Source: an uncultured Microbulbifer sp. (lineage in GTDB: Bacteria; Pseudomonadota; Gammaproteobacteria; Pseudomonadales; Cellvibrionaceae). Taken from it: a stretch of DNA of 64,000 nucleotides. Of the stretch, positions 2,612 through 50,208 are shown piece by piece. The stretch lies in contig NZ_CANNGQ010000001.1 of assembly GCF_947504145.1 (NCBI RefSeq), positions 620,001 to 684,000 of the forward strand, in the 5' to 3' direction. The translations under genes and the position numbers were made by a program. Below the pieces are notes generated by a model. That model had not been told where the DNA came from. It saw only the letters and a program-made list of their open reading frames with translations, and searched no databases. Numbering within the stretch: the stretch's first letter is position 1; every line of letters begins with the position of its first letter.

Positions 2612-4087
2612 TCAATTCTGTAGCAGGGCCGGCACCTGTTCGGTCAGGTTTGCGGCCTCGCTGGTGGCGTCGCCACACAGAGCGAATCCCTGCAGCGTCC
2701 CTTGGCTATCGACAAATACAGCGCGTACACCGGTGTCATCGGCGCGCTGGATTTCCCAGTTGCCGGAAATCCACGGGCGTGCCGGCGACACGGTCACCGG
2801 GCAAAGCGTCGTTTTGATGGTGACTGGCATTGCGCCGTAACGTACCTCGGTCGGCGTGCCGCAAAGCGTCTGTGCCAGTGCGCGGGCGCCTGCGAGCAGT
2901 GGCGCCACGTAGCAGAGGTTGCGACCGTCTACTTCCGCGCAATCACCCAGGGCATAAATATTCTCGACGCTGGTTTGCAGTAGTCGGTCGGTCACGATGC
3001 CGCGGGCGACCTTGAGTCCGGCTTGCTCCGCAATCTGTGTGCGGGCACGTACCCCAATGGCAGAGATTGCCCGATCACAGCGCAGTTGCTGGCCGTTTTC
3101 CAGCGTGGCGAGGAGCTGCCCCTGGCTGTGGTCCAGGCGGGCGACACGTGTACCGAGATGGAAGTTGACGCCCGCCGCGGCGAGATGCTGTTTCACCAGT
3201 TGGCCCGCGGGTGCCGGGAGCAGGGTGGCGAGGACTTCGCCCTGCGGTTCCACCACATGGACTTCGAAGCCCGACTGCACCAGATCATTGGCGTACTCGC
3301 AGCCGATCAATCCGCCGCCGATGATCAACACCGAGCGGGCGCCGCTACTGCCCGCGTAAAAACGCTGGAAATCCTGCAGGTCGTTGATGGGCATGGCCGC
3401 GCCGCCGGCATTGCCTTCCATGGGCGCGGTGATGGTATCTGCGCCCACTGCCAGTACCAGTCGACCGTAGGGCAGCTGTTGTGTGCGCCCGGCGGTTTCC
3501 AGGGTGATGGTCTGATCGGTACTGCCGATCGCCTGCACTCTCGTCAATGTCAGAATCTGTGCGGCCAGGGTTTGCGCCATGGTACGCGCGTCGCTGGTCA
3601 TCAAATCCTGCGGTGCGCGACGCTTCTGAAAGGCGGTGCTGAGCTGCGGTTTGGAATAGTAAGTCCCGTCGTCTGCGCTCACCATGACCAGTGGTGTGGT
3701 GGTGTCGAGCTTGCGGATTTCTCGCGCCAGGTTGTACCCGGCAAGGCCGGTACCGATGATGACGATTGGCGGGAGGCTGTAATCGATATGTGCGGAGACT
3801 TCTGCGGGTGCTGCAACGGCATCGGCGGGAATGGCCTGTGCTTCGCTGTGCTCTGCGGCGGCGGTTTGTGCGGCCTGTTCTGTGCTTGGCTCGGGGTCAT
3901 TTTGTGCTTCGACGGTGCGGACTTCTACCATTTCGAAGTCGCCTTTGCCGACGCCGCATTCCGGGCAGAGCCAGTCGTTGGGAATATCCTCCCAGCGTGT
4001 TCCCGGGGCAATGCCTTCTTCCGGGGCTCCTTTCTGTTCGTCATATACCCAGCCACAGACCAGGCACTCCCAAACTCGATACTGCAT
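2612..4087 (-). CDS. Rubredoxin / rubredoxin-NAD(+) reductase fusion
   Basis: A 491-residue fusion. Residues 1-55 are a rubredoxin with the iron ligands CLVCG and CPECG. After an Ala/Glu-rich linker, residues about 105-490 form an FAD/NAD(P) disulfide-oxidoreductase-type reductase, with [13 protein letters not shown] (FAD Rossmann), [15 protein letters not shown] (NAD Rossmann) and the C-terminal YALGDCAEV motif. RubB/AlkT-type reductases pass electrons from NADH through rubredoxin to oxygenases; here donor and carrier are on one chain. The ATG at 4087 is chosen over an in-frame codon five residues upstream because GGAAAG precedes it by 6-7 bases. It lies 15 bp after the hydrolase gene, so they are co-transcribed. 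It could serve the Rieske oxygenase or the bilin-reductase-like proteins. Confidence 0.92.
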
Positions 4088-4102
4088 AGTGATTCTTTCC
4101 AA

Positions 4103-5137
4103 TTACTTATTACAAACGATGGCCATGCGCGTGCGTTGGCCTTGCACTATTGAGGAAAAGTTTTCCGGCGTATCGTCGCGCAGGTGTACTGACAGAAATG
4201 CACCAAAAATTTCGCCGAGTAGCTGGCGTGCCTCGTCCGGGTTTTCTACCGGGTAATCGAGAAATCCGCGGCCGGTACAGGTGTCGACGGGATGACAGAC
4301 GCTAAAGTGATTGGCCTGCCGCAAAATACACAACCAGTTTTTCTGTTGGTTGTCACTGACCGCGCGGGCGAATGTTTCTTCGATGCGGCCGCTGCACAAG
4401 GCGCTGTTGTCGATATTGATATTGTTATCACCATCACCATCACCATCACCATAGCGCTTGCCACTGGCGGCAATACATCCATCGCGATCGCCGCCGGCGA
4501 GCAGTACCGGAATATCCGCCTGAGGCGCCAGTAGCGTGTCCGGCTCCCAACCCAGTACAGTCGCCGCGCCGGTGTGGGCGCCGTAACTGAACATGGCGCG
4601 CAGCCCGGGTAACCAGGTGTCGCGGCCATTGATCAATGCCAGTGTGCCGCCGGCGGAGTGGCCGCCCAGCGCCAGTCGCTCAAGGTCCAGCTTGCCGGCC
4701 AGCAGCCCGCTGGTATTCAGCGCGTGCAATTCCTGCAGGAGCGACGGGAGTAATACGGCGGAGGGGCTTTCGCCAAAGGTGTCCGGTTTTAGGGCGGCGA
4801 TGTCGATACCGGGGGTGAGGCTTACGCACCCTGGCATTTCCTCGGCAATCAGCCACGGGATCACGGTGACGATGCCCAGTGCTGCGAATTGCGCCGCGAG
4901 CCAGCTGTAGCTACTGGGTTCTACGTTTACGCCGGGCAGAAAGATCGCAACGGGGAAGGGGGCCTGCTCACTGTCGCAGGGCACCTGGCCGGTATTCCGC
5001 TCCGTGTCTGAATTGGAGGGGGAGGCCGGGTAGTACACTTTGAGGGTGGCTGTGTCGTGTGGCGACTGCAAAGTCGGTACACGGAAGCTGGTAAAGAAAG
5101 CGCGGGTAGTGGGCATATTCCGGACTCGGCCTGTCAT
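4103..5137 (-). CDS. Alpha/beta hydrolase, chlorophyllase/dienelactone-like
   Basis: A 344-residue serine hydrolase. It has the oxyanion segment FLPGVNVEPSSY, the nucleophile elbow GHSAGG, an acid-bearing LLAGGDRDG strand and a histidine in ANHFSVCHP. The layout resembles chlorophyllase and related plastic-/lipid-hydrolase families: no signal peptide, a lid after the third strand, cysteines near the C-terminus. A striking Asp-Gly insert (about residues 229-241) is encoded by hexanucleotide repeats. It is first in a unit with the rubredoxin reductase, and a TTGAC-AATT-GTCAT palindrome lies 43-56 bp upstream. De-esterification of chlorophyll-like substrates is suggested by context only. An alternative ATG is at 5116. 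Confidence 0.8.
   Translation of the reverse strand: MTGRVRNMPTTRAFFTSFRVPTLQSPHDTATLKVYYPASPSNSDTERNTGQVPCDSEQAPFPVAIFLPGVNVEPSSYSWLAAQFAALGIVTVIPWLIAEEMPGCVSLTPGIDIAALKPDTFGESPSAVLLPSLLQELHALNTSGLLAGKLDLERLALGGHSAGGTLALINGRDTWLPGLRAMFSYGAHTGAATVLGWEPDTLLAPQADIPVLLAGGDRDGCIAASGKRYGDGDGDGDNNINIDNSALCSGRIEETFARAVSDNQQKNWLCILRQANHFSVCHPVDTCTGRGFLDYPVENPDEARQLLGEIFGAFLSVHLRDDTPENFSSIVQGQRTRMAIVCNK
4412..4452. repeat. Adjacent hexanucleotide repeats inside the hydrolase gene
   Basis: GATATT occurs twice (4412-4423) and ATCACC occurs 4.3 times (4427-4452) on the plus strand. On the coding (minus) strand they encode alternating Gly-Asp and Asn-Ile residues. As the unit is six bases, copy-number changes would keep the reading frame and only lengthen or shorten an acidic surface loop. 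Confidence 0.9.
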
Positions 5138-5254: not shown

Positions 5255-5869
5255 TCAGGGTGCGAGGTGTTGCCAGATTTTGGCCTGAAACGGCGTCTCG
5301 TGGACAGGTCCTGTGCGGCCGCGAGGATCCAGTTCATGGCGGTGATCGCACAGTGGCGAGAGCCGGGTGCCGCGCGCGGTCAGGGTGCGCACGGCGTCGC
5401 CATTGCGGTAGAGCACGGTGTGCCGCACTCGTTGCCCCGGTGCGGTGAGCATAATGAAATCCGGTTCCATATAAACATTGCAGGCGGCATCCAGTTGCCG
5501 GGCGTTGAAGGTCAGCAGCCCGACGCCGCCGGAAACACCGACATTCTCATAGGCACCGGGACCGAGAGGATCGAAGACCAGCAGGTCATCCTGCATGCGA
5601 CCGGTAAAGGTTTTGGCCACCGGTGCGCGACCGCGAATGTGCACGTTGGTGAGCTTCAGGGTGTAGCCGTCAAAGTCCAGGTACACAAGATTGTCGAAGG
5701 GGCTGGGGCCCGGGGTGCCACTGCCCGCATTGGTGTCATCCTCAAGTGGGCGGCCGTCCAGATGAAACAGCTCCACTTGATCGTGCCAGATACCGCGCAT
5801 CAGCATCAGGTTATAACCCACGGAGCCAACCGGGAAGGTGGGATAGTGATTGTCGTTTTGACTTGTCAT
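5255..5869 (-). CDS. Conserved hypothetical protein, beta-rich
   Basis: A 204-residue protein with no signal peptide or recognised motif. It is rich in Gly, Asp and alternating hydrophobic residues and contains many predicted beta strands (for example LVYLDFDGYTLKLTNVHI and DLLVFDPLGPG), so a small barrel or jelly-roll is likely. It heads the minus-strand group with the hydrolase and rubredoxin reductase, 117 bp upstream of the hydrolase, and is divergent from the chlorophyll b reductase-like gene at 6129. I do not recognise a function. Its neighbours suggest a role in the same substrate's handling. Confidence 0.72.
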   Translation of the reverse strand: MTSQNDNHYPTFPVGSVGYNLMLMRGIWHDQVELFHLDGRPLEDDTNAGSGTPGPSPFDNLVYLDFDGYTLKLTNVHIRGRAPVAKTFTGRMQDDLLVFDPLGPGAYENVGVSGGVGLLTFNARQLDAACNVYMEPDFIMLTAPGQRVRHTVLYRNGDAVRTLTARGTRLSPLCDHRHELDPRGRTGPVHETPFQAKIWQHLAP

Positions 5870-6019: not shown

Positions 6020-6128
6020 TAATTTGACGCGAAAACGTGATGCGATCGCAACCCGGCACAGGCTCGACTTCTGTTTCCCAAATCGTACTTCGGCCCTGCG
6101 CTATCTGAATTTCTATAAGGAGAGAGCA

Positions 6129-6944
6129 ATGAAAACCGTCGTTATTACCGGCAGTACCCGGGGCATCGGCCGGGGGCTCGCGGAAAATTTTCTGCGCAAA
6201 GAGTGCCAGGTCGTGATTAGCGGGCGTAGTGCACCGGTGGTCGATCGCGTTGTGTCAGAACTTGAGACCGCGTATCCGGGGCGGGTTGCCGGTCGCGCTT
6301 GCGATATAACCGCGGCAGCGGATGTGCAGGCACTGTGGGATGCCGCTTATGACACCTTTGGCAGTGTGGATGTGTGGATTAACAATGCCGGGATGAGCAT
6401 TGTACGCAAGCCTCTGGCGGAGCAGTCGGTCGCAGACCTGGAAACGATTGTCGCCACCAATCTGACCGGTTTGTTAATTGCCAATAAGGTGGTTCTCGCC
6501 GAGATGCTGCGCAAAGACCACGGCCAGATCTGGAACATGGAAGGGTTTGGCAGTAACGGTCAGAGTGCGCCGGGTATGGTCCCCTATGGTGCTACCAAGC
6601 GTGCCCTGAATTATGTGAATGGCAGCTTGCAGAAAGAGGTCAAGGGCACAAAGGTGCAGGTCAATACCCTGAGCCCCGGTATTGTGGTAACGGATCTACT
6701 CGTAGGCGATTACGACCTGTCTTCGGATGAGTGGCGCAAGACCAAAAAAATTCTCAATATCCTGGGGGACACGGTGGAAACCGTGACGCCTTTCCTGGTG
6801 AACGGCGTGCTCAAGGCCGACAAGTCCGGTGCCCGCGTCGCCTGGCTCACCACCGGCAAAGCCTTCGCGCGTTTTCTTACCGCGGGTTTCAACAAGCGGG
6901 ACCTGTTTGCCGAGTATGAGGCTCAGGCACAGCAGTCTGCCTGA
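6129..6944 (+). CDS. Short-chain dehydrogenase, NOL/NYC1 (chlorophyll b reductase)-like
   Basis: A 271-residue classical-fold SDR. It has GSTRGIGRG for NAD(P), VDVWINNAG, and YGATK with the catalytic Tyr/Lys. From memory it follows plant NOL/NYC1 chlorophyll(ide) b reductase unusually closely: WINNAG, KPLAE-S-x-x-DL, TN-x-x-GL, an N-x-E/D-G-x-GS-x-G segment, YGATKR and LSPGxVxTDLL. As in NOL, the usual Ser 13 residues before Tyr is not at its standard place; the G-x-GS-x-G loop occupies that region. The ATG at 6129 follows AAGGAGA. The paralogue at 33515-34324 sits beside an RCCR-like gene. Reduction of a formyl group on a chlorin is plausible; another carbonyl substrate cannot be excluded. 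Confidence 0.85.
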   Translation: MKTVVITGSTRGIGRGLAENFLRKECQVVISGRSAPVVDRVVSELETAYPGRVAGRACDITAAADVQALWDAAYDTFGSVDVWINNAGMSIVRKPLAEQSVADLETIVATNLTGLLIANKVVLAEMLRKDHGQIWNMEGFGSNGQSAPGMVPYGATKRALNYVNGSLQKEVKGTKVQVNTLSPGIVVTDLLVGDYDLSSDEWRKTKKILNILGDTVETVTPFLVNGVLKADKSGARVAWLTTGKAFARFLTAGFNKRDLFAEYEAQAQQSA

Positions 6945-7024: not shown

Positions 7025-8368
7025 TCACACGCCGCTGGGCGTGGCGCTCGCGCTGGCTTCATTGCCAGGTGTTGCTGCGCTGCGGTCGCGCCCGATAAAC
7101 ATTGCCCAGGTGAGAACCGCAAAGGCCACCGCGGAAAAGAATACGAAAGGCCCGGAAGGGCGCCAGGCATCAAACAGATAGCCGCCTACCACGCTGGCCA
7201 CCAGGATGCCCACTGCGCCGCTTAAGGTGAAGAAGCCGATCACCGCGCCGCGCTGGCGTTCCGGCGCCTGTTGGTTGATCAGCACACCACTGGTGATGAT
7301 GCAGCTGATCTCTCCCAGGCCGATCAGTACCGCGCAGAAAATCATTGCGGGGGAAAAGGGGTCGAAAATGAAAATGGTCGAGCCGTAACCGATCGCTGAA
7401 ATCAGCAGCGCAATACGCAGTGCAACCAGCCGGTTGATCTTGTCCGCCAGAATGCCGAATACCGGTGCGCCAAGCAGTGCGCACCCCTGGGCGATGCCGA
7501 CGATCATACCCGCGCGGCCCAGTGCCTCTGCGCGGTTCATGCCGAGTTCTGCGGTGCCGTAATTGGTGACCCATAGTGTGAAGAAGGTGCCGACAATCAT
7601 CAGGTTGCCGCGCGCTACAAAGGAGGCACCGTAGGCGAGGGCGATGGCCGGATCCTTGCCTGAGCGCAGGCCGGCGCGGGTGATCTGCCACAGAGTCTCG
7701 CTGTGTTCGCCATCGCTGCTTTCGCTGGTGCCTTTCTTCAGGCCGAAGAACATGACAATGCCGGTAATGGCGGTGGCGATGGCCACCATTGAGTAGGTCC
7801 AGAGTCCGGCTTCATCCGTGCTGGCACCGGCGCTCTGAAAAATGGCGGGTAACTGCAGCAGGAAAAAGACGCTTACCATGGCGCCAAACCCGTTCATGAC
7901 CCCTTGCAGGCCGGTGGCGCGGCCGCGGCTATCGTTGACTGCGTAGTCTCCGATTAGCGTAACAATACAGGTGGTGACCGCAGCGAGACCGACGGAGTAG
8001 AGTAGGCGGAAGGCCAGCAGTTCATTGAGGGTGTCGGCGTGTGGATAGAGCGCAATACCCGCGGCCATTACCAGAAAACCCAACCCGGTGACCGGGCGGC
8101 GGCCCAGCCGATCGGACAGCGGGCCGAAGATTGCCACCGCAATGATGATGACAATTTCCGCCCAGAAGTTCAGTAAACCACTGACGACACCGTGGCGCTC
8201 CTGCGGGATACCGAGAAATTCAGTCAGCAGAAACGGCTGGCTCTGGGGGATAAACGACGCGAACAGGATGGTCGCGAAGCAGGAGAAGTAGAACGTAAGC
8301 AGATTGCCCCCGCTCACCGCGGGATTGAGTTCTATGCCGAGAATGCGGCGCCCGGTTTGCTGGTTCAT
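7025..8368 (-). CDS. Major facilitator superfamily transporter
   Basis: A 447-residue MFS protein with about 12 hydrophobic segments and the loop signature GPLSDRLGRRP between helices 2 and 3, placing it among drug/organic-acid:H+ antiporter-type carriers. It resembles the transporter at 30227-31543 over its length (shared GRATGLQG, SYGA/AYGA-S-F and NYGT/QYGT-ELGM segments), so the two are paralogues in one catabolic region. The ATG at 8368 is preferred over a TTG eight codons upstream because GGAAAAG precedes it. Inner membrane; substrate unknown, possibly a catabolite or organic acid. Confidence 0.9.
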   Translation of the reverse strand: MNQQTGRRILGIELNPAVSGGNLLTFYFSCFATILFASFIPQSQPFLLTEFLGIPQERHGVVSGLLNFWAEIVIIIAVAIFGPLSDRLGRRPVTGLGFLVMAAGIALYPHADTLNELLAFRLLYSVGLAAVTTCIVTLIGDYAVNDSRGRATGLQGVMNGFGAMVSVFFLLQLPAIFQSAGASTDEAGLWTYSMVAIATAITGIVMFFGLKKGTSESSDGEHSETLWQITRAGLRSGKDPAIALAYGASFVARGNLMIVGTFFTLWVTNYGTAELGMNRAEALGRAGMIVGIAQGCALLGAPVFGILADKINRLVALRIALLISAIGYGSTIFIFDPFSPAMIFCAVLIGLGEISCIITSGVLINQQAPERQRGAVIGFFTLSGAVGILVASVVGGYLFDAWRPSGPFVFFSAVAFAVLTWAMFIGRDRSAATPGNEASASATPSGV

Positions 8369-8618
8369 GGTTCTTTTCCGGTTGTGGCGCAAATGGCCAT
8401 TGTGTTTATTTTGGCGTTCTCGAAAGCCCGAAAAACCGGGCGCAGGGCGCCGGGTAAATCATTCAGACTGCATTGCTTACGTCTACAACGTCGAATCGGA
8501 TTCTTGCGGAAAAGATATAATGACCGTATTTTAGAACAAATGCTACCGCGCCGGCCCGGAGCGGGGATGAAGACCAAAGAAGCTGATAGATGCTGATAAT
8601 AGAAGCTGGAGATAACGC

Positions 8619-10529: not shown

Positions 10530-11276
10530 ATGAGCGGAACCTCTCTTCCAAAATCGCTGGCGGACAAAACCCGCGACCGGCTCGTTAACGAGCTTCAGCT
10601 GACCGAGCAGCCCGGCCCGCAAGGCGGTGCCTGGATCCCGCTGGAAAGTCACGCTCCCATGGCCCAGGGGTCCGTTGGCGAGGTGCGCCGCTACACCGGC
10701 GGCGGCCTCCTGCATCTGGTGAGCTGCTCCATCGTTGTGCCGCAGATCGGCCTCGATTCCCACATGCTATTTGCTTTTACCCCCAGTGAAACCGCAGTCC
10801 CGCACTTCACCCTCGATTCTGTGGGTGCGGGCGGGCACTGCGCCTTTCACCTCGACCTGATTCCGCGCCTCGATCTCGGCGCCAACCTCGCCTACATGGA
10901 CGAGGCCTTCACCCCGCTGACGGAAACCTGCAAGGCCGGACGTGCGATCGAAGGGCTCTCCGCCGCGCACCTGGACCCGCGCCAGAACGCGGTGATGTCA
11001 CCCTGGATGCTTGCGCACCGTGCAACGCCCGAAGCCTTTGAACAAATCGACGATACCGTAACTGCGTATCTCGATCACTGGCTGACACTGCTCAACAAGG
11101 GCATCAGCAGCGACGTGCTGGACGACGTCAACAGCGAAATTCTTGCGCGGCGCGATGCGCGCAATAAAGCCATTATTTTTGATCCCGCCGTGGACAAGGT
11201 CTGGAATCAGATTGGTGGCCTGATTGGTGAAGAAAGCGCGCTGGCGCTGCGTAACCTGCTGACCATGTGCGGCTGA
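10530..11276 (+). CDS. Red chlorophyll catabolite reductase / bilin reductase-like protein (paralogue 1)
   Basis: A 248-residue soluble protein. It has the core pattern shared by the four paralogues here and, from memory, by plant RCCR: a V-P-H-F strand (residues 90-93), then DLIPRLDL (109-116), then a helix starting Y-M-D-E. Later segments YLDHWLTLLNKG and RRDARNKA match the RCCR C-terminal helices (LEVWLE..., ERRDKSF...). RCCR and ferredoxin-dependent bilin reductases reduce linear tetrapyrroles without a bound metal, using ferredoxin electrons. Similarity is by eye and remote. An FNR-type box lies 72 bp upstream, and the gene sits between the nitrilase and the acyl-CoA-dehydrogenase-fold gene. 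Confidence 0.65.
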   Translation: MSGTSLPKSLADKTRDRLVNELQLTEQPGPQGGAWIPLESHAPMAQGSVGEVRRYTGGGLLHLVSCSIVVPQIGLDSHMLFAFTPSETAVPHFTLDSVGAGGHCAFHLDLIPRLDLGANLAYMDEAFTPLTETCKAGRAIEGLSAAHLDPRQNAVMSPWMLAHRATPEAFEQIDDTVTAYLDHWLTLLNKGISSDVLDDVNSEILARRDARNKAIIFDPAVDKVWNQIGGLIGEESALALRNLLTMCG

Positions 11277-11397
11277 GCACGCGAGGCCTTTCCCGGCCCA
11301 CGTGTGCTGAATACCCATTTCTGTATCGCCGGAATAATCGAATAAATAATCCGGGTGCTGTGACGTGCGACGTCCGTGTGCCCGAGGGGAAATAGCG

Positions 11398-19135: not shown

Positions 19136-19189
19136 TTCGCGCCAAAAGACATAGGCTTATAACATTCAACAGTTGTTGTGGAGTTGTGC

Positions 19190-25238: not shown

Positions 25239-25289
25239 TGACGCAAACCAACGGGAAATTCCCAGCGAGGTTTGACAAGGAGAATGACG

Positions 25290-40981: not shown

Positions 40982-41072
40982 CATGGGAATTGGTTGCCGG
41001 TGATGGGCCCCGCAGTGGTGGCGAGTGTTTGTGAGGTAGTTAGCAATGTTTTAAATCAGAATGGAGCTGATT

Positions 41073-43889
41073 ATGAAAATAACGAACCTGCATACTGCAG
41101 GACTCGCTCTGGCTATCGCAACCGGGCTCGGGGTTTATTCCCTCGGCGCCAATGCGGAGAGCCAGTGTGGGTTACTGGATGCCCAGTCTTACGACGGCAC
41201 CTGTAATAACTTGTTGTTTCCGCAGTGGGGGGCGGCAGATCGACTGTACACACATGGTACTGAAGGAGCGCGCTATGCGGCGGACGGTGTATCGCCGTGG
41301 ATCGAAGAGCGCGGGCTGGGTGTTGAGGCCATCAACGAGCGGGCAATCAGTAACGCCCTGATGGCAAACAAGACTGGCATTTCCATGAACAGTGACTCGG
41401 CGTTGTCACACAACGTGCTGTGGATGGGGCAATTTGTCACCCACGATGCGTCAAAGATCGATCGGAACCGCTTTGAGCACGCCTATTACACGGATACCTT
41501 GCCCCGCCTGGTTCTGGGGGCAAATCCACAGAATCCGACCAGCGCCGATATGTATCAGTGGCTTGGTGTTCACCCGAATGACCCCAGCAAATGCCTGCCG
41601 CAGTTTGATGAATACTTTCAGTTTGTTCCCTGTGCGGTAAAAGTGCCTCAGCGGGATTTTGCCATTGAGGCGGCTCAGGATTACATCGACGCCAATGATG
41701 TGCCGGGCATTCGGGTGATAAATCCTGAATCCATCGATAATGAGATTGCGCGAATCATGTTCTCACGCAATCCATTGCTGCCATTTACTGGCGCGGTGTC
41801 CACGCCGGTTATTGTGCACCCGGAGGCGATCTACGAGGTACAAGACGAGAAAAAAGCCATTCGCAACAAGATCAATGCGTGGCTGGACCTCTCATCTATT
41901 TATGGCGACTCTGCGGCGGTGAACGCGGATCTGCGCTCCACACCCAATCCACAGGATCCCTTTGGTCCGCGCGTTCCGGTAGGTGGGGGCAAGTTGGCGA
42001 CCTATGATTATCTTGGTCCCGATGCAAAAACCGTTCATTACCGCCCCAATCCGGAGTTGAAGGTGGATCTCTATGAGTTCCTGCCAACAGCCGACAAAAT
42101 ACCGGCGCATCCGCGGCCGAACGACCCCACCAGAGCGTTCAATCCTCAGGATGAATTCCTCTCCGGTGATGATCGCGCCTCGGAAAACCTGCAGCTAATG
42201 GCGTTTCACCTCGCATTTCATCGCTACCATAATCGCGTTGCCGAGCAGATGGCCAACAAGTATGCGGGAGTGACGTCAATCATGTCAGCGGAGACTGCGG
42301 ACGAGTTTCTCTTCCAGAAGACGCGCCGATTTGTGATTGCGGTTTACCAGCACATACTGTTTGACGAGTATTTGCCCGCGTTATTGGGATCGCAGTTTGA
42401 CGAATTGATCGGCAGCTACCAGGGTTACAACCCGTTTGTGAGCCCAGACTCCAACACCAATATGTGGAACGCGGCTTTCCGGTACGCCCACAGCTCGGTG
42501 CCAAAAGAGTTTCTGGTGTTTGACGAGAATGGCGATAACGTCATCAAGCCTCAGGTGGCGCTGGAATACCCGGATCCAGCAGGGCCACCGGTGGCCAGTT
42601 TTGCCGATGTGGTAAACCGCAGCTTTATTCCGGAGTTCGGTACGCAGAATGTACCGGGGCTTTCCCAGAGCGGTCCCAATCCACCCTTTACTCTGGTGAG
42701 CCATGTGGCGCTTCACAGTGCCTCCGGTCAGGGTATTGCCAATGTGTTTCGCTCTATGAGCCGCACGATTACCTCCAATATCGATCTGATCTACGAAGAC
42801 AGTGTGCGGGATGTTGTGGCCGCACAGAGTATGATCAATGCCGGTATTGACCTGGCGGCAATCGATCTGCGCTCAGCCCGGGAAGTGGGGGTTCCGGATT
42901 TCAATACCTTGCGTACGTTCTACCGCGGAAAGTCGGTTTACAGCGAGACCGGTGAAAACGACGCTTGCCGCTGGTGGCACCGGCTGTACGAAACAGACCC
43001 CCTCGCTTGCTTCCTCGAGGTGACCTCTGATGAGTCTGTCGCCCAGGCGCTGCGGGACCGCTTCAAAAAAGTCTCCAATGTCGAAGGCCTGCTGGGACTA
43101 CTGGCAGAGGACAAGGTGCCCGGATCGCCGCTGCCGCGTACTATGGCGAAAATGATCGCTAAAGAGTTCAAAAATAAGCGCGCGTCAGATCGTTTCTGGT
43201 ATGAACTGATCTTCGATAATGATGAAGAAATGTTGTCGGAGATCCGCTCTGTATCCATGGCCGATATTTTCGCCCAGACCGCCTGCGGTGTGGGTGAGCC
43301 CAATTGCAGCCTGGCAAAGCAGGAACTGGGTGTGGCGGATTCCAGTGGGTATCTGAATGTTTTCACGGTGGATTCATCTATCCCACAAATCACATACGAA
43401 GCGGGCGCTTGTGTCCATGCGGGGTTCTACCCCAATCTGGATGCACCTGAAGACTTTTCTCGGGCAAGTAATTTTATTGCCTGCTCGGAGAGCTACTCCA
43501 GGGATGCCTGTGATGCCGCTTCATTCAATGGTGATATCACCGGTGATGGCATTCCCGACGTGCCACCATTCCAGTCGGTTTACCTGGGTAGTGCCAAGCC
43601 GTATGGAGGACAGATCTGCCCAGACGCACTGGAGCCTCAGCACGTGAACTTCCAGTTTGGTCCCGCTGCCGTACTACCGGCGCTGGGTACCTGTCGGCAG
43701 GGCTTTATCCATATGCGGGACAAGGTTTATGGTGTTCCCTTTGGTCCGCCGCTGAATACCGCGGAAGTGGAACGCTGGTGTACCAGTGACGATAAAAACT
43801 TCCTGAAAGGCGGCCTGTTCGGCGAATGGGTGGATGGCGCTGCGCCTTCTCCCGGTGTTTCGGCCTACCCGCCGCCGGTAAGATATTGA
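41073..43889 (+). CDS. Exported animal-type haem peroxidase
   Basis: A 938-residue protein of the peroxidase-cyclooxygenase (animal haem peroxidase) superfamily. It has a signal peptide (MKITNLHTAGLALAIATGLG...NA). Family landmarks are GQFVTHD (distal His), DLSSIYGDS, SGDDRASENLQLMAFHLAFHRYHNRVAEQM, and AFRYAHSSVP, which matches the R-F/Y-x-H-S/T segment with the proximal His. An extra C-terminal 250 residues with several Cys follow the catalytic domain. GGAG stands 8 bases before the second of two ATGs (41073). Periplasmic or secreted H2O2-dependent oxidation of a pigment or phenolic is likely. Control is by the divergent TetR gene's paired operators. Confidence 0.9.
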   Translation: MKITNLHTAGLALAIATGLGVYSLGANAESQCGLLDAQSYDGTCNNLLFPQWGAADRLYTHGTEGARYAADGVSPWIEERGLGVEAINERAISNALMANKTGISMNSDSALSHNVLWMGQFVTHDASKIDRNRFEHAYYTDTLPRLVLGANPQNPTSADMYQWLGVHPNDPSKCLPQFDEYFQFVPCAVKVPQRDFAIEAAQDYIDANDVPGIRVINPESIDNEIARIMFSRNPLLPFTGAVSTPVIVHPEAIYEVQDEKKAIRNKINAWLDLSSIYGDSAAVNADLRSTPNPQDPFGPRVPVGGGKLATYDYLGPDAKTVHYRPNPELKVDLYEFLPTADKIPAHPRPNDPTRAFNPQDEFLSGDDRASENLQLMAFHLAFHRYHNRVAEQMANKYAGVTSIMSAETADEFLFQKTRRFVIAVYQHILFDEYLPALLGSQFDELIGSYQGYNPFVSPDSNTNMWNAAFRYAHSSVPKEFLVFDENGDNVIKPQVALEYPDPAGPPVASFADVVNRSFIPEFGTQNVPGLSQSGPNPPFTLVSHVALHSASGQGIANVFRSMSRTITSNIDLIYEDSVRDVVAAQSMINAGIDLAAIDLRSAREVGVPDFNTLRTFYRGKSVYSETGENDACRWWHRLYETDPLACFLEVTSDESVAQALRDRFKKVSNVEGLLGLLAEDKVPGSPLPRTMAKMIAKEFKNKRASDRFWYELIFDNDEEMLSEIRSVSMADIFAQTACGVGEPNCSLAKQELGVADSSGYLNVFTVDSSIPQITYEAGACVHAGFYPNLDAPEDFSRASNFIACSESYSRDACDAASFNGDITGDGIPDVPPFQSVYLGSAKPYGGQICPDALEPQHVNFQFGPAAVLPALGTCRQGFIHMRDKVYGVPFGPPLNTAEVERWCTSDDKNFLKGGLFGEWVDGAAPSPGVSAYPPPVRY

Positions 43890-43962: not shown

Positions 43963-43992
43963 GTTGTCTTCCCGTAAAAAGGATTTATGGTT

Positions 43993-44727
43993 ATGGAAAC
44001 TGCAGAAGTGACGGATGCGCAAATCCAAATCGGAGAGTGTTGCGAAGAGATCGAAGCGCAGGTGATCTCCAGATTGGGCTTGAAGCCGGTCCCGGAATAT
44101 CAGTCGTTATCGTCGATCAAGAATCTTCAGGGGCGCGCCACCGGATATGCTCGCGTGTATCGAGGAGAAGTGATTGAGAAAGCGGCCTTTCTGACTCTCA
44201 ATTTCATGCCCGGTATGTGCTATTTCAATGTGCACCTGATCCCGCGGGCCTGCTACCGTATCCCGCGATTCTCCTTTGAGGGGATGCTTACCCCTCAGGG
44301 GAGCCAGATCTCGATGGATCTGTATCCCGACATGGATATCATGTTGAACCTGGAGTATTTCAGAAGTCATTACAAACGGGCGGCGGATACTTATACCCGC
44401 GCGCGGTTTGATAGTTCTGCGCTGGTTACCGAACCCTCGCGCATGCTACATATGCGGGCGTTTGCCTCGCCATATATGTTGCTCGCCTATGGCGTCAAGG
44501 AAGCGCAGGTCGCGGAATTCTGTGGATACGCGCAAGCGTATTTACAAGACTGGATGGACCTCTGTTCCGCATCACAGATCTGTAGTGAGGGTGAGGTCGA
44601 GGATCGCATCCGGCGCCGTGAGTTAATTATGCGCACGATCATTGAGTGCGACCCGGATAGAGAAAAGGTGGTCATGCTGTACGGGGAAGCCGTGACCGAG
44701 CAGATCGAACAGGCGACCATGCTGTAA
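43993..44727 (+). CDS. Red chlorophyll catabolite reductase / bilin reductase-like protein (paralogue 4)
   Basis: A 244-residue protein with the same spacing as paralogue 1: IPRF (90-93), then DLYPDMDI (109-116) and YFRSHY (122-127). FEGMLTPQGSQIS before it resembles the P-x-F-x-x-E-x-x-x-x-G stretch of ferredoxin-dependent bilin reductases. It is the most divergent of the four and the one most like phycobilin-type reductases. AAGGA precedes the second ATG (43993) by 9 bases and the first (43987) by only 3, which decides the start. It follows the haem peroxidase after a probable terminator. Confidence 0.62.
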   Translation: METAEVTDAQIQIGECCEEIEAQVISRLGLKPVPEYQSLSSIKNLQGRATGYARVYRGEVIEKAAFLTLNFMPGMCYFNVHLIPRACYRIPRFSFEGMLTPQGSQISMDLYPDMDIMLNLEYFRSHYKRAADTYTRARFDSSALVTEPSRMLHMRAFASPYMLLAYGVKEAQVAEFCGYAQAYLQDWMDLCSASQICSEGEVEDRIRRRELIMRTIIECDPDREKVVMLYGEAVTEQIEQATML

Positions 44728-45710: not shown

Positions 45711-46376
45711 ATGAGCATCTATCTACTGATCAAGTTTTTCCATAACCTGTGTTTTGTTTACTGGCTGGGCGGTGACCTAGGCACCTTTTATGCGAGCCGC
45801 TTTGTCGCCCGCGATGACCTCAGCCCTCAGGCGCGCAACACGGCGCTGACCATCATGATGGGCTGTGATCAGGGGCCCCGTTTCTGTATGCCATTGATAT
45901 TGCCGCTGGGCTTACAACTGGCGTATTTGACTGGTCAGTTCTCGGTGCCCGCATCGATAGTCGCCGCGGCTTGGGTGCTGTGTCTTGCCTGGTTCGTGCT
46001 GGTGGCGGTGTTGCACTTCAGTCACGGTAATGCGTTTATTCCTGCACTGACCCGGCTTGATTTCGGACTGAGGGTAGCTCTGATCGTTGGGCTATTGGGT
46101 GTGGCCCTGGTTGCCCTGTCGACCAATGCGATTTTTCCCGCGGACTGGCTGGCCATCAAACTCGGCATCTTTGCCTTGATGGTGTTTTGCGGCTTGATGA
46201 TTCGGGTGCGCCTGAAAAGCTTTATTGCCGCTTGGGGTAAGGTAATGGCCGGATCGGCAGATGATCAGACGAATCAGACGATTCGCAACAGCATCGCTGC
46301 CTGCCGTCCCTTCGTGTACGTTATCTGGATTGGCCTCCTGGCCAATGCAGCCTATGGCCTGCACCTGATCAGCTGA
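45711..46376 (+). CDS. Inner-membrane protein, CopD/HemJ-like
   Basis: A 221-residue protein with five or six hydrophobic helices. The opening LIKFFHNLCFVYWLGGDLGTFYASRF resembles the first helix of HemJ/CopD-type proteins (W-x-K-A-x-H ... W-x-x-G-x-x), whose His can bind haem or copper. Other polar helix residues are few. It is followed after 15 bp by the GST gene and then by the Rieske oxygenase, so it may belong to the same unit. A porphyrin- or haem-linked redox role is tempting but not shown. Confidence 0.72.
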   Translation: MSIYLLIKFFHNLCFVYWLGGDLGTFYASRFVARDDLSPQARNTALTIMMGCDQGPRFCMPLILPLGLQLAYLTGQFSVPASIVAAAWVLCLAWFVLVAVLHFSHGNAFIPALTRLDFGLRVALIVGLLGVALVALSTNAIFPADWLAIKLGIFALMVFCGLMIRVRLKSFIAAWGKVMAGSADDQTNQTIRNSIAACRPFVYVIWIGLLANAAYGLHLIS

Positions 46377-46391
46377 CCTGAGGACCGAACT

Positions 46392-47045
46392 TTGAAGCTT
46401 TACAGTATTCCCCATTCCCCCTATGGCGCCCGAGTCAGTGCATTGATCCGGCTGAAGCAGCTTCCGATCGAGGTGTTGCCGCCCCCCGAAGCTTTGCGCA
46501 CAGAGGGGTTCTTCAAGCGCTTTCCCCTGGGCAAAGTTCCGATTCTGGAGCTGGACGACGGTAGCTGCCTGGGAGAGAGCTGGGCGATTCTCGAATACCT
46601 GGAGGAAACATCGACTTCCAGTCGTTCACTGAGCCCGAAAGATGCCCTGGCGCGCGCGCGGATGAGTGAGCTTGCGCGCTACGCGGATCTGCACCTTTCC
46701 CCCAACGCGCTGTTTCCGTTGTTCCGCTCCGCGCTGGCCGGGCAAGCCCTCGGTGAAGATACCGAAGCGGCATTGCGCGCGGAGCTCGCTAAGGGCGAGC
46801 GGTTGATTCAGGCCCGAGGCCCGATCGCGGGCCGTTGCCTTGACCTGGGTGATGTCGCACTGGCGCCCAGCATCCTGTACCTCGAGCTACTCACCGGTGG
46901 CGTGGGAGAGAGTGCTGTACTCTGTGAGTTTCCGGCGTTTTCGGCTTGGTGGCAGGAGATCCGGAATATTCCGGAGCTCGCGGGTGTGCTCAACGGTGTC
47001 GCGGAAGCATTCGAAGCCTTTGCCGGCGCTAAAGCTTCTGCGTGA
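46392..47045 (+). CDS. Glutathione S-transferase-like protein
   Basis: A 217-residue GST. The N-terminal thioredoxin-fold has KLYSIPHSPYGARV with a Ser/Tyr at the usual activating place, then PLGKVPILELDDGSCLGESWAILEYL (the cis-Pro and Glu-Ser GSH-binding motif), followed by an all-helix C-terminal domain. The start is TTG at 46392, fixed by GAGGA 7 bases before. It lies 15 bp after the membrane protein and 154 bp before the Rieske gene. Isomerisation or conjugation of an electrophilic intermediate is likely; plant GSTs also bind porphyrins, which may be relevant here. Confidence 0.88.
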   Translation: MKLYSIPHSPYGARVSALIRLKQLPIEVLPPPEALRTEGFFKRFPLGKVPILELDDGSCLGESWAILEYLEETSTSSRSLSPKDALARARMSELARYADLHLSPNALFPLFRSALAGQALGEDTEAALRAELAKGERLIQARGPIAGRCLDLGDVALAPSILYLELLTGGVGESAVLCEFPAFSAWWQEIRNIPELAGVLNGVAEAFEAFAGAKASA

Positions 47046-47199: not shown

Positions 47200-48390
47200 A
47201 TGCTGACCAACCTTTGGTATGTGGCCGAATGGTCAAACGTGGTCAAGGACAAGCCGGTGAAGGCGAAATTGCTCGGTCAGAACTTCGTTCTGTACCGGGA
47301 CAAGGCGGGCAAGGTGCACTGCCTGAGTGATGTGTGTATTCACCGCGGCGGCTCCCTGTCCAATGGTTGGACTACCGATCGCAATTGCGTTGCCTGTCCG
47401 TATCACGGCTGGGAATTCGATTCCGAAGGCAAGGTGCAGTTTATTCCGTCTCGCGGTGAGGGCGCACCCATCCCCGAGCGGGCGCGCATCGATGCCTATC
47501 CCACGGAAGAGCGCTACGGCATGATCTGGGTATTTATGGGTGATCTGCCGGAGTCCGAGCGTTACCCGATTCCCGAATTCCCCGAGTACGACGACCGCGA
47601 CAACTGGCGCCCGGTATCCCTGGATTTCACCTGGAAGGGCACCGTGGATCGGGTGGTGGAAAACGGGATCGATATCGCGCATACCTCCTTCGTCCACCCG
47701 GGATTTGGTTATCCGGAAATGGCGGACCAGAACAAGATTATTGATGTGGAGCGTGGCGAGTATTGGGGGCGCTCCTCCAATGTGCTTCACCCGCCTCAGC
47801 TGGAAGGCAATTTCGGTCTGATGAAGTTTTTCCGCAAGGACAAACAGCCAACTTACGTGACGCCTTCATTCTATCTTCCCGGTCACTGCGTGCGCCTGCA
47901 TATCAAGGTGAACTCGTGGATGGATATGGTGATTTTCGATGCGAACACCCCGGTGGACGAGAATACCACCCGTTCGTTTGCCATCCAGGTACGCAACTTC
48001 TTCAAGTGGCCTATGTTCGATGGCGGCGCCATCAAACGCACCCGCAACGTATTCCAGCAGGACGCGGAGATCGTGGAGGCGCTGTCCCCCAACTATCTGC
48101 CGGAAACCCTGGAGAACGAAGTGTCTGTAGAGCAGGACAAGTTTATGGGTGCCTGGCGCGTGATCCGGCGCAAGCATATTGATATGGGCTGGAAGATCGA
48201 TACGCGGGCAATGAAAGCGTATGAAGGGGAAAAAGTATTTACCATTCCGTCACCGGCTCGCAAGACCAACCCGGACCTGAAGTGGGCGCTGGAAACAGTA
48301 CCATTGGTCACGGGAAAGCCTGATCTGATACCAACAACAACGGTCGCCGGTGGTGTCAGTGAAACGGCGCAGACGGCGGAATCCGCGTAA
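47200..48390 (+). CDS. Rieske-type oxygenase (pheophorbide a oxygenase/vanillate demethylase group)
   Basis: A 396-residue Rieske oxygenase. The [2Fe-2S] domain has C-I-H (LSDVCIHRGG) and C-P-Y-H (CVACPYHGWEF). The catalytic domain has ENGIDIAHTSFVHPG with the mononuclear-iron ligands D/H/H, as in pheophorbide a oxygenase (E-N-x-x-D-x-x-H-x-x-x-x-H) and related single-chain oxygenases. A C-terminal CxxC found in plant PAO is not evident. The family uses O2 and electrons from a reductase; the rubredoxin reductase or a ferredoxin system could supply them. In this setting oxygenolytic ring opening or ring hydroxylation of a tetrapyrrole is proposed; O-demethylation of an aromatic is the alternative. 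Confidence 0.9.
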   Translation: MLTNLWYVAEWSNVVKDKPVKAKLLGQNFVLYRDKAGKVHCLSDVCIHRGGSLSNGWTTDRNCVACPYHGWEFDSEGKVQFIPSRGEGAPIPERARIDAYPTEERYGMIWVFMGDLPESERYPIPEFPEYDDRDNWRPVSLDFTWKGTVDRVVENGIDIAHTSFVHPGFGYPEMADQNKIIDVERGEYWGRSSNVLHPPQLEGNFGLMKFFRKDKQPTYVTPSFYLPGHCVRLHIKVNSWMDMVIFDANTPVDENTTRSFAIQVRNFFKWPMFDGGAIKRTRNVFQQDAEIVEALSPNYLPETLENEVSVEQDKFMGAWRVIRRKHIDMGWKIDTRAMKAYEGEKVFTIPSPARKTNPDLKWALETVPLVTGKPDLIPTTTVAGGVSETAQTAESA

Positions 48391-48595: not shown

Positions 48596-48615
48596 CCTGG
48601 ATCAGGTTGCGGACA

Positions 48616-48984: not shown

Positions 48985-48993
48985 AGTGGTTTC

Positions 48994-50208
48994 CTACTTC
49001 TCGGCGACGTAAACATGCCATGCCGGTTTGCGTCCGTAGTCTTCAGCGGCATCGTCGGTATCCCCGGCGCTGGGGAACAGGCTCTCGTCTACCACCGCGG
49101 TCAGGCCGATGGAGGAGAGCTTGCTACGCGCGAAGCCCGCGTTTTCCATCAGCGCGAAGACGTCAATATCGTGCATGGTGCCCCAGAAGGGCTCGTTGTT
49201 ATTGCGGCTATCCCAGTCGCGCATAAACTGCTCGAACAGGGGCATGTCATCGGTGAACTGCGGCTGTTCGATATGCAGTACTCGACCGCCTGCGCGGGTC
49301 AGGCGATGGGTTTCGTTGATCACATTGGGCAATGCGGTGGACGAGAGCTCGTGCAGAAACATGCAGGTAATCACCAGGTCAAAGCTGCCGTCGGCATAAT
49401 CCAGGCTTTCCGCATTGGCCTGACGGAAGGTAATGTTCTCGACCCCGAGGGATTTGGCGCGGGCATGGGCGTAGCGCAACACGGGCGCGGCGACATCCAC
49501 GGCGACGATTTCCGTCTCCGGGAAAGCCTGAGCGATGGGTACGATGTTGTGGCCCACGGTGCACCCCATATCCAGAATGCGCTTGGGTTTGAACCCTTGT
49601 TTTGCCTGCTCGTGTAGCCAGGCCACGATTGCCTGGCCGCCGCCATCGCTGTACTTGCCCAGCATACCGGCGGTGGTCACGAAGATGCCGGAGTCGTAGT
49701 TCGCAGCGACCGAAACATCGTCCTCACAATACTCTGTGTAGTAGCACCCGGGCATGCAGTGGATGTCCACTGCCGAAACATAGCGCGGCAAGGGCAGCGC
49801 CGGGTCCAGTTGCAGTTGGGTGCTACCGCTGTTGAGATCGGCGGCTTTCTGGTTGAGCTGGTCCCACTGGCGATAGGCGAGGCTGCGGCCATTTTGCTGG
49901 CGCATTTCCATGATGTTGCGCCGCAGGGAGCTCCAGGTCTGGTAGTAGGGGTCTGCCTCCATCAGGCGGCGCACTTCCTGGCGAGTGGCGGGCGGGCGCC
50001 CCTTGTCGGATTCAAAGCGGGGTCGTGCGCGCTTTTCATAAGCCGATTGAACCCCGGGCATGACTTCCTGTGCCACATGCATGTTCAGGTTTGTGAGAAA
50101 ATTAAAGCGGGCGGTTTCGTCGTGATTGGCCTTTGGAAACACGCCGTGTTTGCCAATCACATGCCAGCCCGGTGGTGTTTTTCTTGACTTGCTAGACATG
50201 CTAGACAT
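48994..50208 (-). CDS. SAM-dependent methyltransferase
   Basis: A 404-residue class I methyltransferase. An N-terminal 200-residue part without known motif includes CMPGCYYTEYCED. The SAM domain follows, with RILDMGCTVGHNIVP (motif I), EIVAVDVAAPVL and DLVITCMFLHELS. The ATG at 50208 is used because GGAGG stands 5-6 bases before it; the longer start at 50223 is a TTG overlapping that site. The partner small protein follows. It is divergent from the VOC/imidase operon with a shared FNR-type box. The substrate is unknown. Confidence 0.88.
   Translation of the reverse strand: MSSMSSKSRKTPPGWHVIGKHGVFPKANHDETARFNFLTNLNMHVAQEVMPGVQSAYEKRARPRFESDKGRPPATRQEVRRLMEADPYYQTWSSLRRNIMEMRQQNGRSLAYRQWDQLNQKAADLNSGSTQLQLDPALPLPRYVSAVDIHCMPGCYYTEYCEDDVSVAANYDSGIFVTTAGMLGKYSDGGGQAIVAWLHEQAKQGFKPKRILDMGCTVGHNIVPIAQAFPETEIVAVDVAAPVLRYAHARAKSLGVENITFRQANAESLDYADGSFDLVITCMFLHELSSTALPNVINETHRLTRAGGRVLHIEQPQFTDDMPLFEQFMRDWDSRNNNEPFWGTMHDIDVFALMENAGFARSKLSSIGLTAVVDESLFPSAGDTDDAAEDYGRKPAWHVYVAEK

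What the first reader, a model, noticed from the sequence alone, without database searches (positions are those of the whole stretch)
2612..50208. Candidate bacterial tetrapyrrole (chlorophyll or bilin) catabolic supercluster
Gene families that are linked in plants only by chlorophyll breakdown occur together here: four RCCR/bilin-reductase-like proteins, two NOL/NYC1-like chlorophyll b reductases, a PAO-group Rieske oxygenase and a possible chlorophyllase-like hydrolase. A BLVRB-like reductase, a CopD/HemJ-like protein, a GST, a haem peroxidase and two TonB receptors lie among them. Two of the types (SDR and RCCR) are 19 bp apart in one operon. From memory I know of no described bacterial pathway with this set. 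The individual family calls are by eye from recalled plant sequences; the joint occurrence is what makes the case.
Basis: partly seen in the sequence, partly recalled or inferred. Interest (0 to 1): 0.92.

Follow-up and report, generated by a model that had tools for sequence, protein, structure and literature searches.

The report
Candidate bacterial chlorophyll-breakdown gene cluster
A marine bacterium carries a large, conserved gene neighbourhood with several relatives of the plant enzyme that reduces opened chlorophyll, next to genes that could take the fragments down to ordinary metabolites; it may be a bacterial route for recycling chlorophyll, but the substrate has not been shown.

Summary
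The window (Microbulbifer-like gammaproteobacterium) has four members of the RCCR/bilin-reductase superfamily. Two pass Pfam's RCC_reductase cut-off; their group's profile matches Arabidopsis RCCR at 8e-25, far above bilin reductases, and the model of one has RCCR as nearest fold. The other two belong by profile-profile comparison. The neighbourhood recurs, shuffled, in other genera. A new double-barrel protein occurs in exactly the 10 of 293 order genomes with an RCCR match, the chlorophyllase-like hydrolase in 8 of those and none of the other 283.

Parts of the interpretation fail or stay open. The Rieske oxygenase is VanA-type, not PAO-type. NOL affinity was not testable. The Pfam chlorophyllase match is marginal and common in the order. 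RCCR2/3/5 types keep the Asp291 counterpart but lack the acid at Glu154. No PF01126 haem oxygenase was found in 13 RCCR-positive genomes.

New here: imide/amide hydrolases, a LeuCD-like hydratase, a petal-death-protein-like lyase and a mesaconyl-CoA-type module would fit mineralisation of dialkylmaleimides, possible one-ring fragments. Best reading: catabolism of a linear tetrapyrrole, most likely chlorophyll-derived. No biochemistry exists.

The parts
1028..1591 (-). Flavin reductase-like protein; possible partner of a flavin monooxygenase
   Evidence: PF01613 E 6.8e-44; 3 of 31 genome groups
1557..2528 (-). unk323: new family, predicted double beta-barrel (calycin-like); candidate tetrapyrrole-binding protein (inferred)
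   Evidence: no Pfam match at 0.01; present in exactly the 10 RCCR-positive of 293 genomes; AlphaFold pLDDT 87.7; Foldseek best BFA1 5yvf and DUF3598 2o62
2612..4102 (-). Rubredoxin fused to NADH:rubredoxin reductase-like flavoprotein; candidate electron donor (inferred)
   Evidence: PF00301, PF07992, PF18113; near Rieske/unk204 in four loci of other genera
4103..5137 (-). Chlorophyllase/cutinase-like alpha/beta hydrolase; Ser161, Asp219, His277 invariant in 10 members
   Evidence: PF07224 26.8 vs cut-off 26; 6 of 10 members match PF07224; alignment A5; 8 of 10 RCCR-positive and 0 of 283 other genomes
5255..5869 (-). unk204: conserved family without Pfam match
   Evidence: 12 of 31 groups
6024..6944 (+). 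SDR1, short-chain dehydrogenase
   Evidence: PF00106 E 1.8e-39; 14 of 31 groups
7025..8392 (-). MFS1 transporter
   Evidence: PF07690
8619..10403 (+). Two-domain nitrilase/amidase family protein
   Evidence: PF00795, two stretches; 10 of 31 groups
10530..11276 (+). RCCR1: RCCR/FDBR superfamily, both acid positions kept (D96, D222)
11365..12663 (+). Acyl-CoA-dehydrogenase-fold protein, possibly a flavin monooxygenase
   Evidence: PF02770, PF02771; 9 of 31 groups
12739..14187 (+). Aldehyde dehydrogenase 1
   Evidence: PF00171
14151..15104 (+). Alpha/beta hydrolase
15104..15724 (+). Isochorismatase-like amidohydrolase
   Evidence: PF00857
15721..16974 (+). FAD-dependent aromatic-hydroxylase-like monooxygenase
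   Evidence: PF01494
16997..17830 (+). Maleate isomerase/AMDase-superfamily protein 1, family motifs without the catalytic Cys
   Evidence: PF17645; motifs of relatives
19178..19966 (+). Maleate isomerase/AMDase-superfamily protein 2, catalytic Cys columns not kept
   Evidence: PDB best maleate isomerase 2xed 3.4e-12
20149..22797 (+). TonB-dependent receptor 1
   Evidence: 3 of 31 groups
24039..26192 (+). CoA transferase III and HMG-CoA-lyase-like protein
   Evidence: PF02515, PF00682
26820..28334 (-). Aldehyde dehydrogenase 2
   Evidence: PF00171 E 1.4e-109
28366..29262 (-). PEP mutase/isocitrate lyase superfamily C-C lyase, nearest solved relative petal death protein; candidate dialkylmalate lyase (inferred)
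   Evidence: 1zlp 2e-57; TIGR02317 below cut-off; KRCGHM motif; 13 of 31 groups
29297..30145 (-). RCCR2: bacterial RCCR-type protein, D243 at the Asp291 position
30227..31543 (-). MFS3 transporter
   Evidence: 17 of 31 groups
32686..33495 (-). RCCR3: bacterial RCCR-type protein
33515..34324 (-). SDR2, 19 bp from RCCR3
   Evidence: adjacency in 23 of 31 loci
34387..35253 (-). NAD-dependent epimerase-like Rossmann protein (Epim), most constant partner of RCCR3
   Evidence: PF01370; 26 of 31 groups
36657..39269 (+). TonB-dependent receptor 2 (accessory)
   Evidence: 3 of 31 groups
41061..43889 (+). Animal-type haem peroxidase (accessory)
   Evidence: PF03098; 1 of 31 groups
43987..44727 (+). RCCR4: RCCR/FDBR superfamily, both acid positions kept (E98, D222)
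   Evidence: 2 of 31 groups
45711..47045 (+).
   Evidence: 9 and 7 of 31 groups
47200..48390 (+). Rieske oxygenase, VanA_C type; candidate ring-opening or demethylating oxygenase (inferred)
   Evidence: 13 of 31 groups
51301..52296 (+). PuuE-like cyclic amide hydrolase; candidate imidase (inferred)
   Evidence: PDB 1z7a 7e-76, PuuE 3cl6 4e-73; 4 of 31 groups
52296..53726 (+). MmgE/PrpD family protein 1
55236..56645 (+). Amidase-signature amidase
   Evidence: PF01425
59792..61929 (+). LeuC/LeuD-like hydratase pair; candidate dialkylmaleate hydratase (inferred)
   Evidence: LeuC 8 and LeuD 7 of 31 groups
61926..63323 (+). MmgE/PrpD family protein 2

Best explanation
A catabolic supercluster that takes up and breaks down a tetrapyrrole, most likely chlorophyll-derived (pheophorbide or its opened products). 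Proposed course; only the family assignments and the co-occurrence are shown, every step is inferred. (1) Uptake by TonB receptors and MFS carriers. (2) Ester hydrolysis by the chlorophyllase-like hydrolase. (3) Oxygenation and ring opening by the VanA-type Rieske enzyme, and perhaps the flavin monooxygenases, with electrons from the fused rubredoxin reductase. (4) Successive reductions of the linear tetrapyrrole by RCCR paralogues with SDR1, SDR2 and Epim, the barrel protein unk323 holding the pigment. (5) Oxidative cleavage to one-ring fragments, the dialkylmaleimides. (6) Imide and amide hydrolysis by the PuuE-like, nitrilase, isochorismatase-like and amidase proteins. (7) Hydration of dialkylmaleates by the LeuCD-like pair and C-C cleavage by the petal-death-protein-like lyase, with a CoA-transferase / mesaconyl-CoA hydratase / HpcH-type lyase branch beyond the window, giving 2-oxoacids and short acids.
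For: RCCR2/3/5-type profile against PDB: Arabidopsis RCCR 8.4e-25 (90.9 bits), best bilin reductase 32.2 bits; fold of RCCR2: the top 9 hits are all RCCR chains. Asp291 counterpart invariant in 14 of 14. unk323 in 10 of 10 RCCR-positive and 0 of 283 other order genomes, chlorophyllase-like hydrolase in 8 of 10 and 0 of 283; Fisher 9e-19 and 4e-14 without correction for kinship. Shuffled but recurring neighbourhood in 31 genome groups, 26 outside Microbulbifer: Epim 26, SDR2 20, SDR1 14, Rieske 13, lyase 13. A second hydrolase family, whose member in G522 has a PF07224 score of 49.3 bits, lies near RCCR genes in five relatives' loci. The lyase's nearest solved relative is petal death protein, recalled to cleave 2-ethyl-3-methylmalate. 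Mesaconyl-CoA hydratase PF19315, HpcH/HpaI lyase and CoA transferase in the right flank. No PF01126 haem oxygenase in 13 RCCR-positive genomes, while 3 of 14 control genomes rang. Haematinic acid as a product from chlorophyll in leaves, maleimides in older reports: PMC7318184 (passages).
Against: No PAO-type oxygenase in the cluster, none in the three Microbulbifer genomes searched; no SGR in 30 genomes (no working control). The Glu154 position is A, V or I in all 14 RCCR2/3/5-type proteins. PF07224 is common in the order, 51 of 293 over cut-off, and the chlorophyllase-like family is about as close to PET hydrolases and cutinases. G433 and G538 lack the chlorophyllase-like gene; the second hydrolase is absent from the window's genome and from RCCR-positive G470, lies on another contig than the RCCR genes in G498, and occurs in RCCR-negative G613. 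The maleate-isomerase-like proteins lack the catalytic cysteines. Distant RCCR3-like genes in other bacteria stand without these neighbours, so the fold alone does not prove this function. Most lower-pathway genes are less constant than the upper ones. PMC7318184 did not itself detect maleimides in leaves (passage). No growth, transcript or metabolite data.
Confidence: 0.58

Rival explanations
1. The substrate is a bilin (phycobilin or haem-derived) rather than chlorophyll: the RCCR/FDBR paralogues reduce bilins from algae or cyanobacteria and the lower genes degrade the fragments.
For: RCCR4 and RCCR1 carry an acid where FDBRs and AtRCCR carry theirs and match HY2/PebB about as well as RCCR, or better; the lower pathway would be the same.
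Against: RCCR2/3 types are clearly closer to RCCR than to FDBR. No PF01126 haem oxygenase in 13 RCCR-positive genomes; other haem-degrading families were not searched. An ester-hydrolase-like protein and a Rieske oxygenase recur in the cluster, which a ready-made bilin would not need.
Confidence: 0.17
2. Another ring-nitrogen compound: RCCR-fold reductases recruited to a different substrate (corrinoid, prodiginine or bipyrrole pigment, or a nicotinate-like heterocycle), which explains the many amidases.
For: Many C-N hydrolases and maleate-isomerase-superfamily genes; the Rieske protein's best NCBIfam match is a 4beta-methylsterol monooxygenase, far below cut-off; the E154 acid is lost in RCCR2/3/5.
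Against: The RCCR and FDBR activities known to me act on tetrapyrroles (established knowledge), and several paralogues of the superfamily sit together; double-barrel and chlorophyllase-like proteins co-occur.
Confidence: 0.15
3. A patchwork: an RCCR/SDR/Epim module of unknown role beside unrelated catabolic operons (nicotinate-like, imide, methylcitrate-like) that happen to adjoin in Microbulbifer.
For: Distant RCCR3-like genes stand alone. At the threshold the PaaK-like, both MmgE and the Glyox genes were found only in Microbulbifer.
Against: Upper genes, lyase, nitrilase and AMDase-like genes recur with RCCRs in rearranged order in other genera.
Confidence: 0.1

Closest known systems
Plant PAO/phyllobilin pathway (chlorophyllase or PPH, SGR, PAO, RCCR, NYC1/NOL)
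   Same: RCCR-type proteins by sequence and fold; a chlorophyllase/cutinase-like hydrolase, a Rieske oxygenase and SDRs accompany them
   Different: Rieske is VanA-type, not PaO; no SGR found (no working control); several RCCR paralogues, the E154 acid lost in RCCR2/3/5; a candidate lower pathway to central metabolites, while plants store phyllobilins (recalled)
Bacterial pre-PcyA/FDBR clusters (PMC10151467, passages)
   Same: Same superfamily in heterotrophic bacteria
   Different: Those clusters typically have haem oxygenase, V4R, Fe-S and globin genes (pre-2: B12-binding and globin). No window protein scanned against Pfam matched globin or V4R, and PF01126 was not found. RCCR2/3 fall nearest RCCR, which that paper uses as outgroup
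Nicotinate (Nic/maleamate) and dimethylmaleate pathways (recalled)
   Same: Isochorismatase-type amidase, FAD monooxygenase, maleate-isomerase-superfamily protein, alpha/beta hydrolase in one run; LeuCD-type hydratase and ICL-superfamily lyase
   Different: Isomerase-like proteins lack the catalytic Cys; embedded among RCCR genes
Petal death protein (PDB 1zlp)
   Same: Nearest solved relative of the lyase 28366-29262, shared KxCGHM loop
   Different: Function here untested; methylisocitrate lyases score close behind

Membership tests
RCC reductase (PF06405) | Pfam score over the curated cut-off | tested here: met
   RCCR2 54.6 and RCCR3 52.5 vs 24.9 bits; RCCR1 (16.1) and RCCR4 (18.5) do not pass
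RCC reductase (PF06405) | Nearest fold is RCCR, not FDBR | tested here: met
   RCCR2 model: ranks 1-9 are AtRCCR chains; of the four only RCCR2 was folded
RCC reductase (PF06405) | Acids at AtRCCR Glu154 and Asp291 (roles recalled; numbering set by the F218V letter) | tested here: not met
   RCCR2/3/5: Asp291 column D in 14 of 14, Glu154 column A/V/I in 14 of 14; RCCR1 D/D in 9 of 9; RCCR4 E/D in 3 of 5, D/N in 2 of 5. Hence filed as RCCR-type members of the superfamily, not as proven RCC reductases
RCC reductase (PF06405) | Ferredoxin-dependent reduction of RCC | not testable with these tools
   needs enzyme assay
Pheophorbide a oxygenase group | PaO domain PF08417 behind the Rieske domain | tested here: not met
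   0 of 11 family members at E up to 1; VanA_C in 11 of 11
Chlorophyllase (PF07224) | Clear family match above related hydrolases | tested here: inconclusive
   26.8 vs 26 bits; 6 of 10 members match PF07224, 5 of 10 PETase, 7 of 10 Abhydrolase_5 at E 0.01; PDB chlorophyllase 8fjd 3.3e-4 behind PET hydrolases
Chlorophyll b reductase NOL/NYC1 | Closer to NOL/NYC1 than to other SDRs | not testable with these tools
   no plant NOL/NYC1 sequence or model was on hand; generic SDR matches only
Ferredoxin-dependent bilin reductase (PF05996) | Pfam score over the curated cut-off (31) | tested here: not met
   RCCR2 22.7, RCCR4 22.0 bits; RCCR1 and RCCR3 no match at 0.01
Maleate isomerase | Two catalytic cysteines (recalled) | tested here: not met
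   protein 19178-19966 has M and G in these columns of the alignment to 2xed; the matching motifs of 8 of 8 relatives read have M or Y and G
Methylisocitrate lyase PrpB (TIGR02317) | NCBIfam equivalog cut-off 354.4 | tested here: not met
   276.1 bits

The most novel reading that the evidence does not exclude
Heterotrophic, mostly marine gammaproteobacteria own a complete aerobic route that mineralises chlorophyll: ester hydrolysis, ring opening by a non-PAO Rieske oxygenase, stepwise reduction by a set of RCCR paralogues with a double-barrel pigment carrier, cleavage to dialkylmaleimides, and a lower pathway through dialkylmaleates and dialkylmalates to 2-oxoacids. RCCR would then be an old bacterial catabolic enzyme family rather than a land-plant speciality.
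Probability: 0.42. Interest if true: 0.93.

Novelty: new variant of a known kind. Interest (0 to 1): 0.84.

Why it matters
Chlorophyll is made and destroyed on a scale of 10^12 kg a year (PMC7318184, passage), and I know of no described bacterial gene set for its breakdown. Nine searches of the held open-access library on this point showed none among the rows listed; several lists were cut short, and subscription journals and preprints are not held. A 2009 survey knew RCCR only from land plants and a few cyanobacteria (PMC2716323, passages). This locus would give genes, named relatives in culture collections and marker families (RCCR3, unk323) to test, and to count in ocean metagenomes, who recycles chlorophyll nitrogen and carbon. 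It would also place plant RCCR within a wider bacterial family.

Tried and rejected
PAO identity of the Rieske enzyme: rejected. Maleate isomerase identity: rejected on the cysteines. PF07224 as a diagnostic marker: rejected, 51 of 293 genomes pass. Staygreen PF12638: 0 of 30 genomes, but no control rang, so no conclusion. Context of the distant RCCR3-like genes: the shared neighbours that I scanned are two-component systems, GDPD, GNAT, acyl-CoA synthetase and the like, with no lead. Sequence search of the unk323 profile in PDB: no match. Second structural aligner: not available. A 2026 phyllobilin review (PMC13203533): no occurrence of the terms I looked for. Rows dropped: the 31 genome groups leave out L061, L070 and L118 (contig lengths equal to those of G633, G498 and G459), L067 (cut short) and G368 (L057, L058; RCCR3 44-49%). 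The groups are genomes, not genera; several share a genus. The 56 control loci have RCCR3 identities under about 55%, come from more distant taxa, and some share a genome, so their zeros are partly expected. Each locus is about 20 kb or less, so the counts are lower bounds. The maximum-likelihood tree of 22 RCCR-type proteins warns of long-branch joins and was not used for claims.

Full report
WHAT IS THERE. The window is G000:C1:620001-684000 of a 4.36 Mb genome. The closest RCCR3 relatives in named genomes are Microbulbifer (78-83% identity), and two genomes that the tool calls same genus, G593 and G633, share most of the window's genes in their RCCR regions, so the host is taken to be Microbulbifer or very near it; the genome itself is unnamed. 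By eye the left flank holds housekeeping genes; the right flank continues with catabolic genes for about 11.5 kb.

THE RCCR GENES. Two proteins pass the Pfam RCC_reductase cut-off about twofold. A profile of 14 RCCR2/3/5-type bacterial sequences finds Arabidopsis RCCR at 8.4e-25 and 90.9 bits, the best bilin reductase at 32.2 bits. The AlphaFold model of RCCR2 (mean pLDDT 87.2) has nine AtRCCR chains as the first nine Foldseek hits, TM 0.69-0.77, then PebB, HY2 and PcyA. RCCR1 and RCCR4 are more distant: hhalign joins their families to RCCR2/3 with 98.7 and 99.4% probability over 224 and 223 columns. Against PDB the RCCR4 family finds AtRCCR at 2.6e-11 and HY2 at 1e-9; the RCCR1 family finds HY2 at 0.003 and AtRCCR only at 1.4. 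A fifth type (RCCR5, my label), 28-36% identical to RCCR2 or RCCR3, occurs in relatives, in several next to the chlorophyllase-like gene.

ACTIVE SITE. AtRCCR numbering was set by the F218V letter change at chain position 175 (offset 43). The position of Asp291 is Asp in 14 of 14 RCCR2/3/5-type sequences and in nine of nine RCCR1-type; the position of Glu154 is A, V or I in the 14, Asp in the nine RCCR1-type, Glu in three RCCR4-type, and Asp in the two distant RCCR4-like, which have Asn at the other site. That these two residues serve catalysis in plants is recalled. RCCR2/3 may therefore run a different reduction from plant RCCR, while RCCR1 and RCCR4 keep two acids.

CO-OCCURRENCE. PF06405 matches lie in 10 of 293 order genomes and 4 of 369 class genomes, own genome included. 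In the same 293 genomes the family unk323 (1557-2528) occurs in exactly those 10, and the chlorophyllase-like protein in 8 of those 10 and no other. Fisher values are 9e-19 and 4e-14; the 10 genomes fall in 5 genera, so these overstate the independence. Within the genus, three genomes have RCCR and the four others listed do not. In one search I counted window genes near RCCR genes in 31 genome groups (26 not Microbulbifer; at least 40% identity, 50% coverage): Epim 26, SDR2 20, MFS3 17, SDR1 14, Rieske 13, lyase 13, unk204 12, chlorophyllase-like hydrolase 10, AMDase-like-2 10, nitrilase 10, unk323 9, ACAD-like 9, RCCR1 8, RCCR2 8, LeuC-like 8. By the same count TonB2 3, RCCR4 2, BLVRB-like 2, haem peroxidase 1; these are accessory. 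At 56 loci of distant RCCR3-like genes none of the window's other genes passed that threshold; below it, an Epim-like gene (36-38%) lies by RCCR3 in four actinobacterial loci. Gene order is shuffled between genera, so the recurrence is not one block carried unchanged.

WHAT THE OTHER PARTS ARE. The Rieske protein is VanA_C type in 11 of 11 members and PaO in none. PaO is not found in the three Microbulbifer genomes searched; it matches in 3 of the 13 RCCR-positive genomes, once over the cut-off. The hydrolase has an invariant Ser-Asp-His set but sits between chlorophyllase, PETase and general families. Relatives carry a second hydrolase family near RCCR genes (five loci) whose member in G522 scores 49.3 bits to PF07224, the best PF07224 match of the order search (45 bits there). 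It is absent from the window's genome and from G470, lies away from the RCCR genes in G498, and occurs in RCCR-negative G613. unk323 is predicted as a double beta-barrel; the best folds are BFA1 and the DUF3598 protein 2o62 (TM 0.55-0.67), then far weaker matches, porins first, and among them nitrobindin and the fatty-acid-binding-like Ycf58. A pigment-holding role is an inference from that fold class.

LOWER PATHWAY. The lyase 28366-29262 lies next to RCCR2. Its nearest solved relative is carnation petal death protein (2e-57), ahead of methylisocitrate lyases (4e-54 and weaker) and 2,3-dimethylmalate lyase (1.2e-46). It scores below the PrpB cut-off (276.1 vs 354.4). All 14 family members read, the window's included, have KRCGHM, while the methylisocitrate lyase aligned has KRCGHRPNK. 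I recall that petal death protein cleaves 2-ethyl-3-methylmalate (Lu 2005, seen only as a reference-list entry). That would be the hydrated form of the ring-B fragment of chlorophyll a. The PuuE-like protein matches solved PuuE allantoinase at 4e-73, a cyclic amide hydrolase. With the LeuCD-like pair, the amidases and, in the right flank, mesaconyl-CoA hydratase PF19315, an HpcH/HpaI lyase, an acyl-CoA dehydrogenase, a further PuuE-like protein and isochorismatase, and a CoA transferase, this fits breakdown of alkylated maleimides. PMC7318184 (passages) found haematinic acid in leaves and cites older reports of maleimides, but did not detect maleimides itself. The maleate-isomerase-like proteins lack the cysteines, so their step is open.

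ALTERNATIVES. No PF01126 haem oxygenase was found in 13 RCCR-positive genomes, while three of 14 control genomes rang; other haem-degrading families were not searched. Phycobilins taken up ready-made, corrinoids and other pyrrole pigments cannot be excluded.

LITERATURE. Nine searches of the held open-access library on this point showed no bacterial RCCR-containing catabolic cluster among the rows listed; a tenth was on the lyase. PMC10151467 (passages) uses RCCR-related sequences only as outgroup; PMC2716323 (passages) knew RCCR from land plants and a few cyanobacteria. Subscription journals and preprints are not held, so this is not proof of absence.

VERDICT. A real, conserved, multi-gene system centred on RCCR-type proteins in heterotrophic bacteria, most likely for catabolism of linear tetrapyrroles from chlorophyll. 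The substrate and every reaction are untested.

Noticed in passing
L083-L140 (the 56 control loci): RCCR3-like genes (40-53%) stand without the cluster in Gammaproteobacteria MAGs and in Actinobacteria; 13 of the 56 share a histidine kinase and 12 a response regulator. In Nocardioides and Mumia an Epim-like gene lies beside RCCR3.
   Followed up: partly
window 16997-17830, 19178-19966: Maleate-isomerase/AMDase-superfamily proteins, highly conserved (up to 93%) but without the catalytic cysteines; chemistry unknown.
   Followed up: partly
window 8619-10403: One protein with two carbon-nitrogen hydrolase stretches in tandem.
   Followed up: no
L054 (G538): The unk323 gene appears in three pieces in this relative, next to a shortened RCCR-like frame; another unk323 copy in the genome spans nearly the full length. 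Noted only.
   Followed up: no
L044:16507-17718 and relatives: A second hydrolase family with a stronger chlorophyllase Pfam score (49.3 bits in G522) near RCCR genes of several relatives, absent from the window's genome.
   Followed up: partly
L077:7666-8193: A glyoxalase-fold protein (PF13669) in 8 of 19 relatives' loci examined, not matched by a window protein.
   Followed up: no
window 22919-23887: Conserved 322-aa protein without Pfam match at 0.001, 75% identical in Aestuariicella.
   Followed up: no
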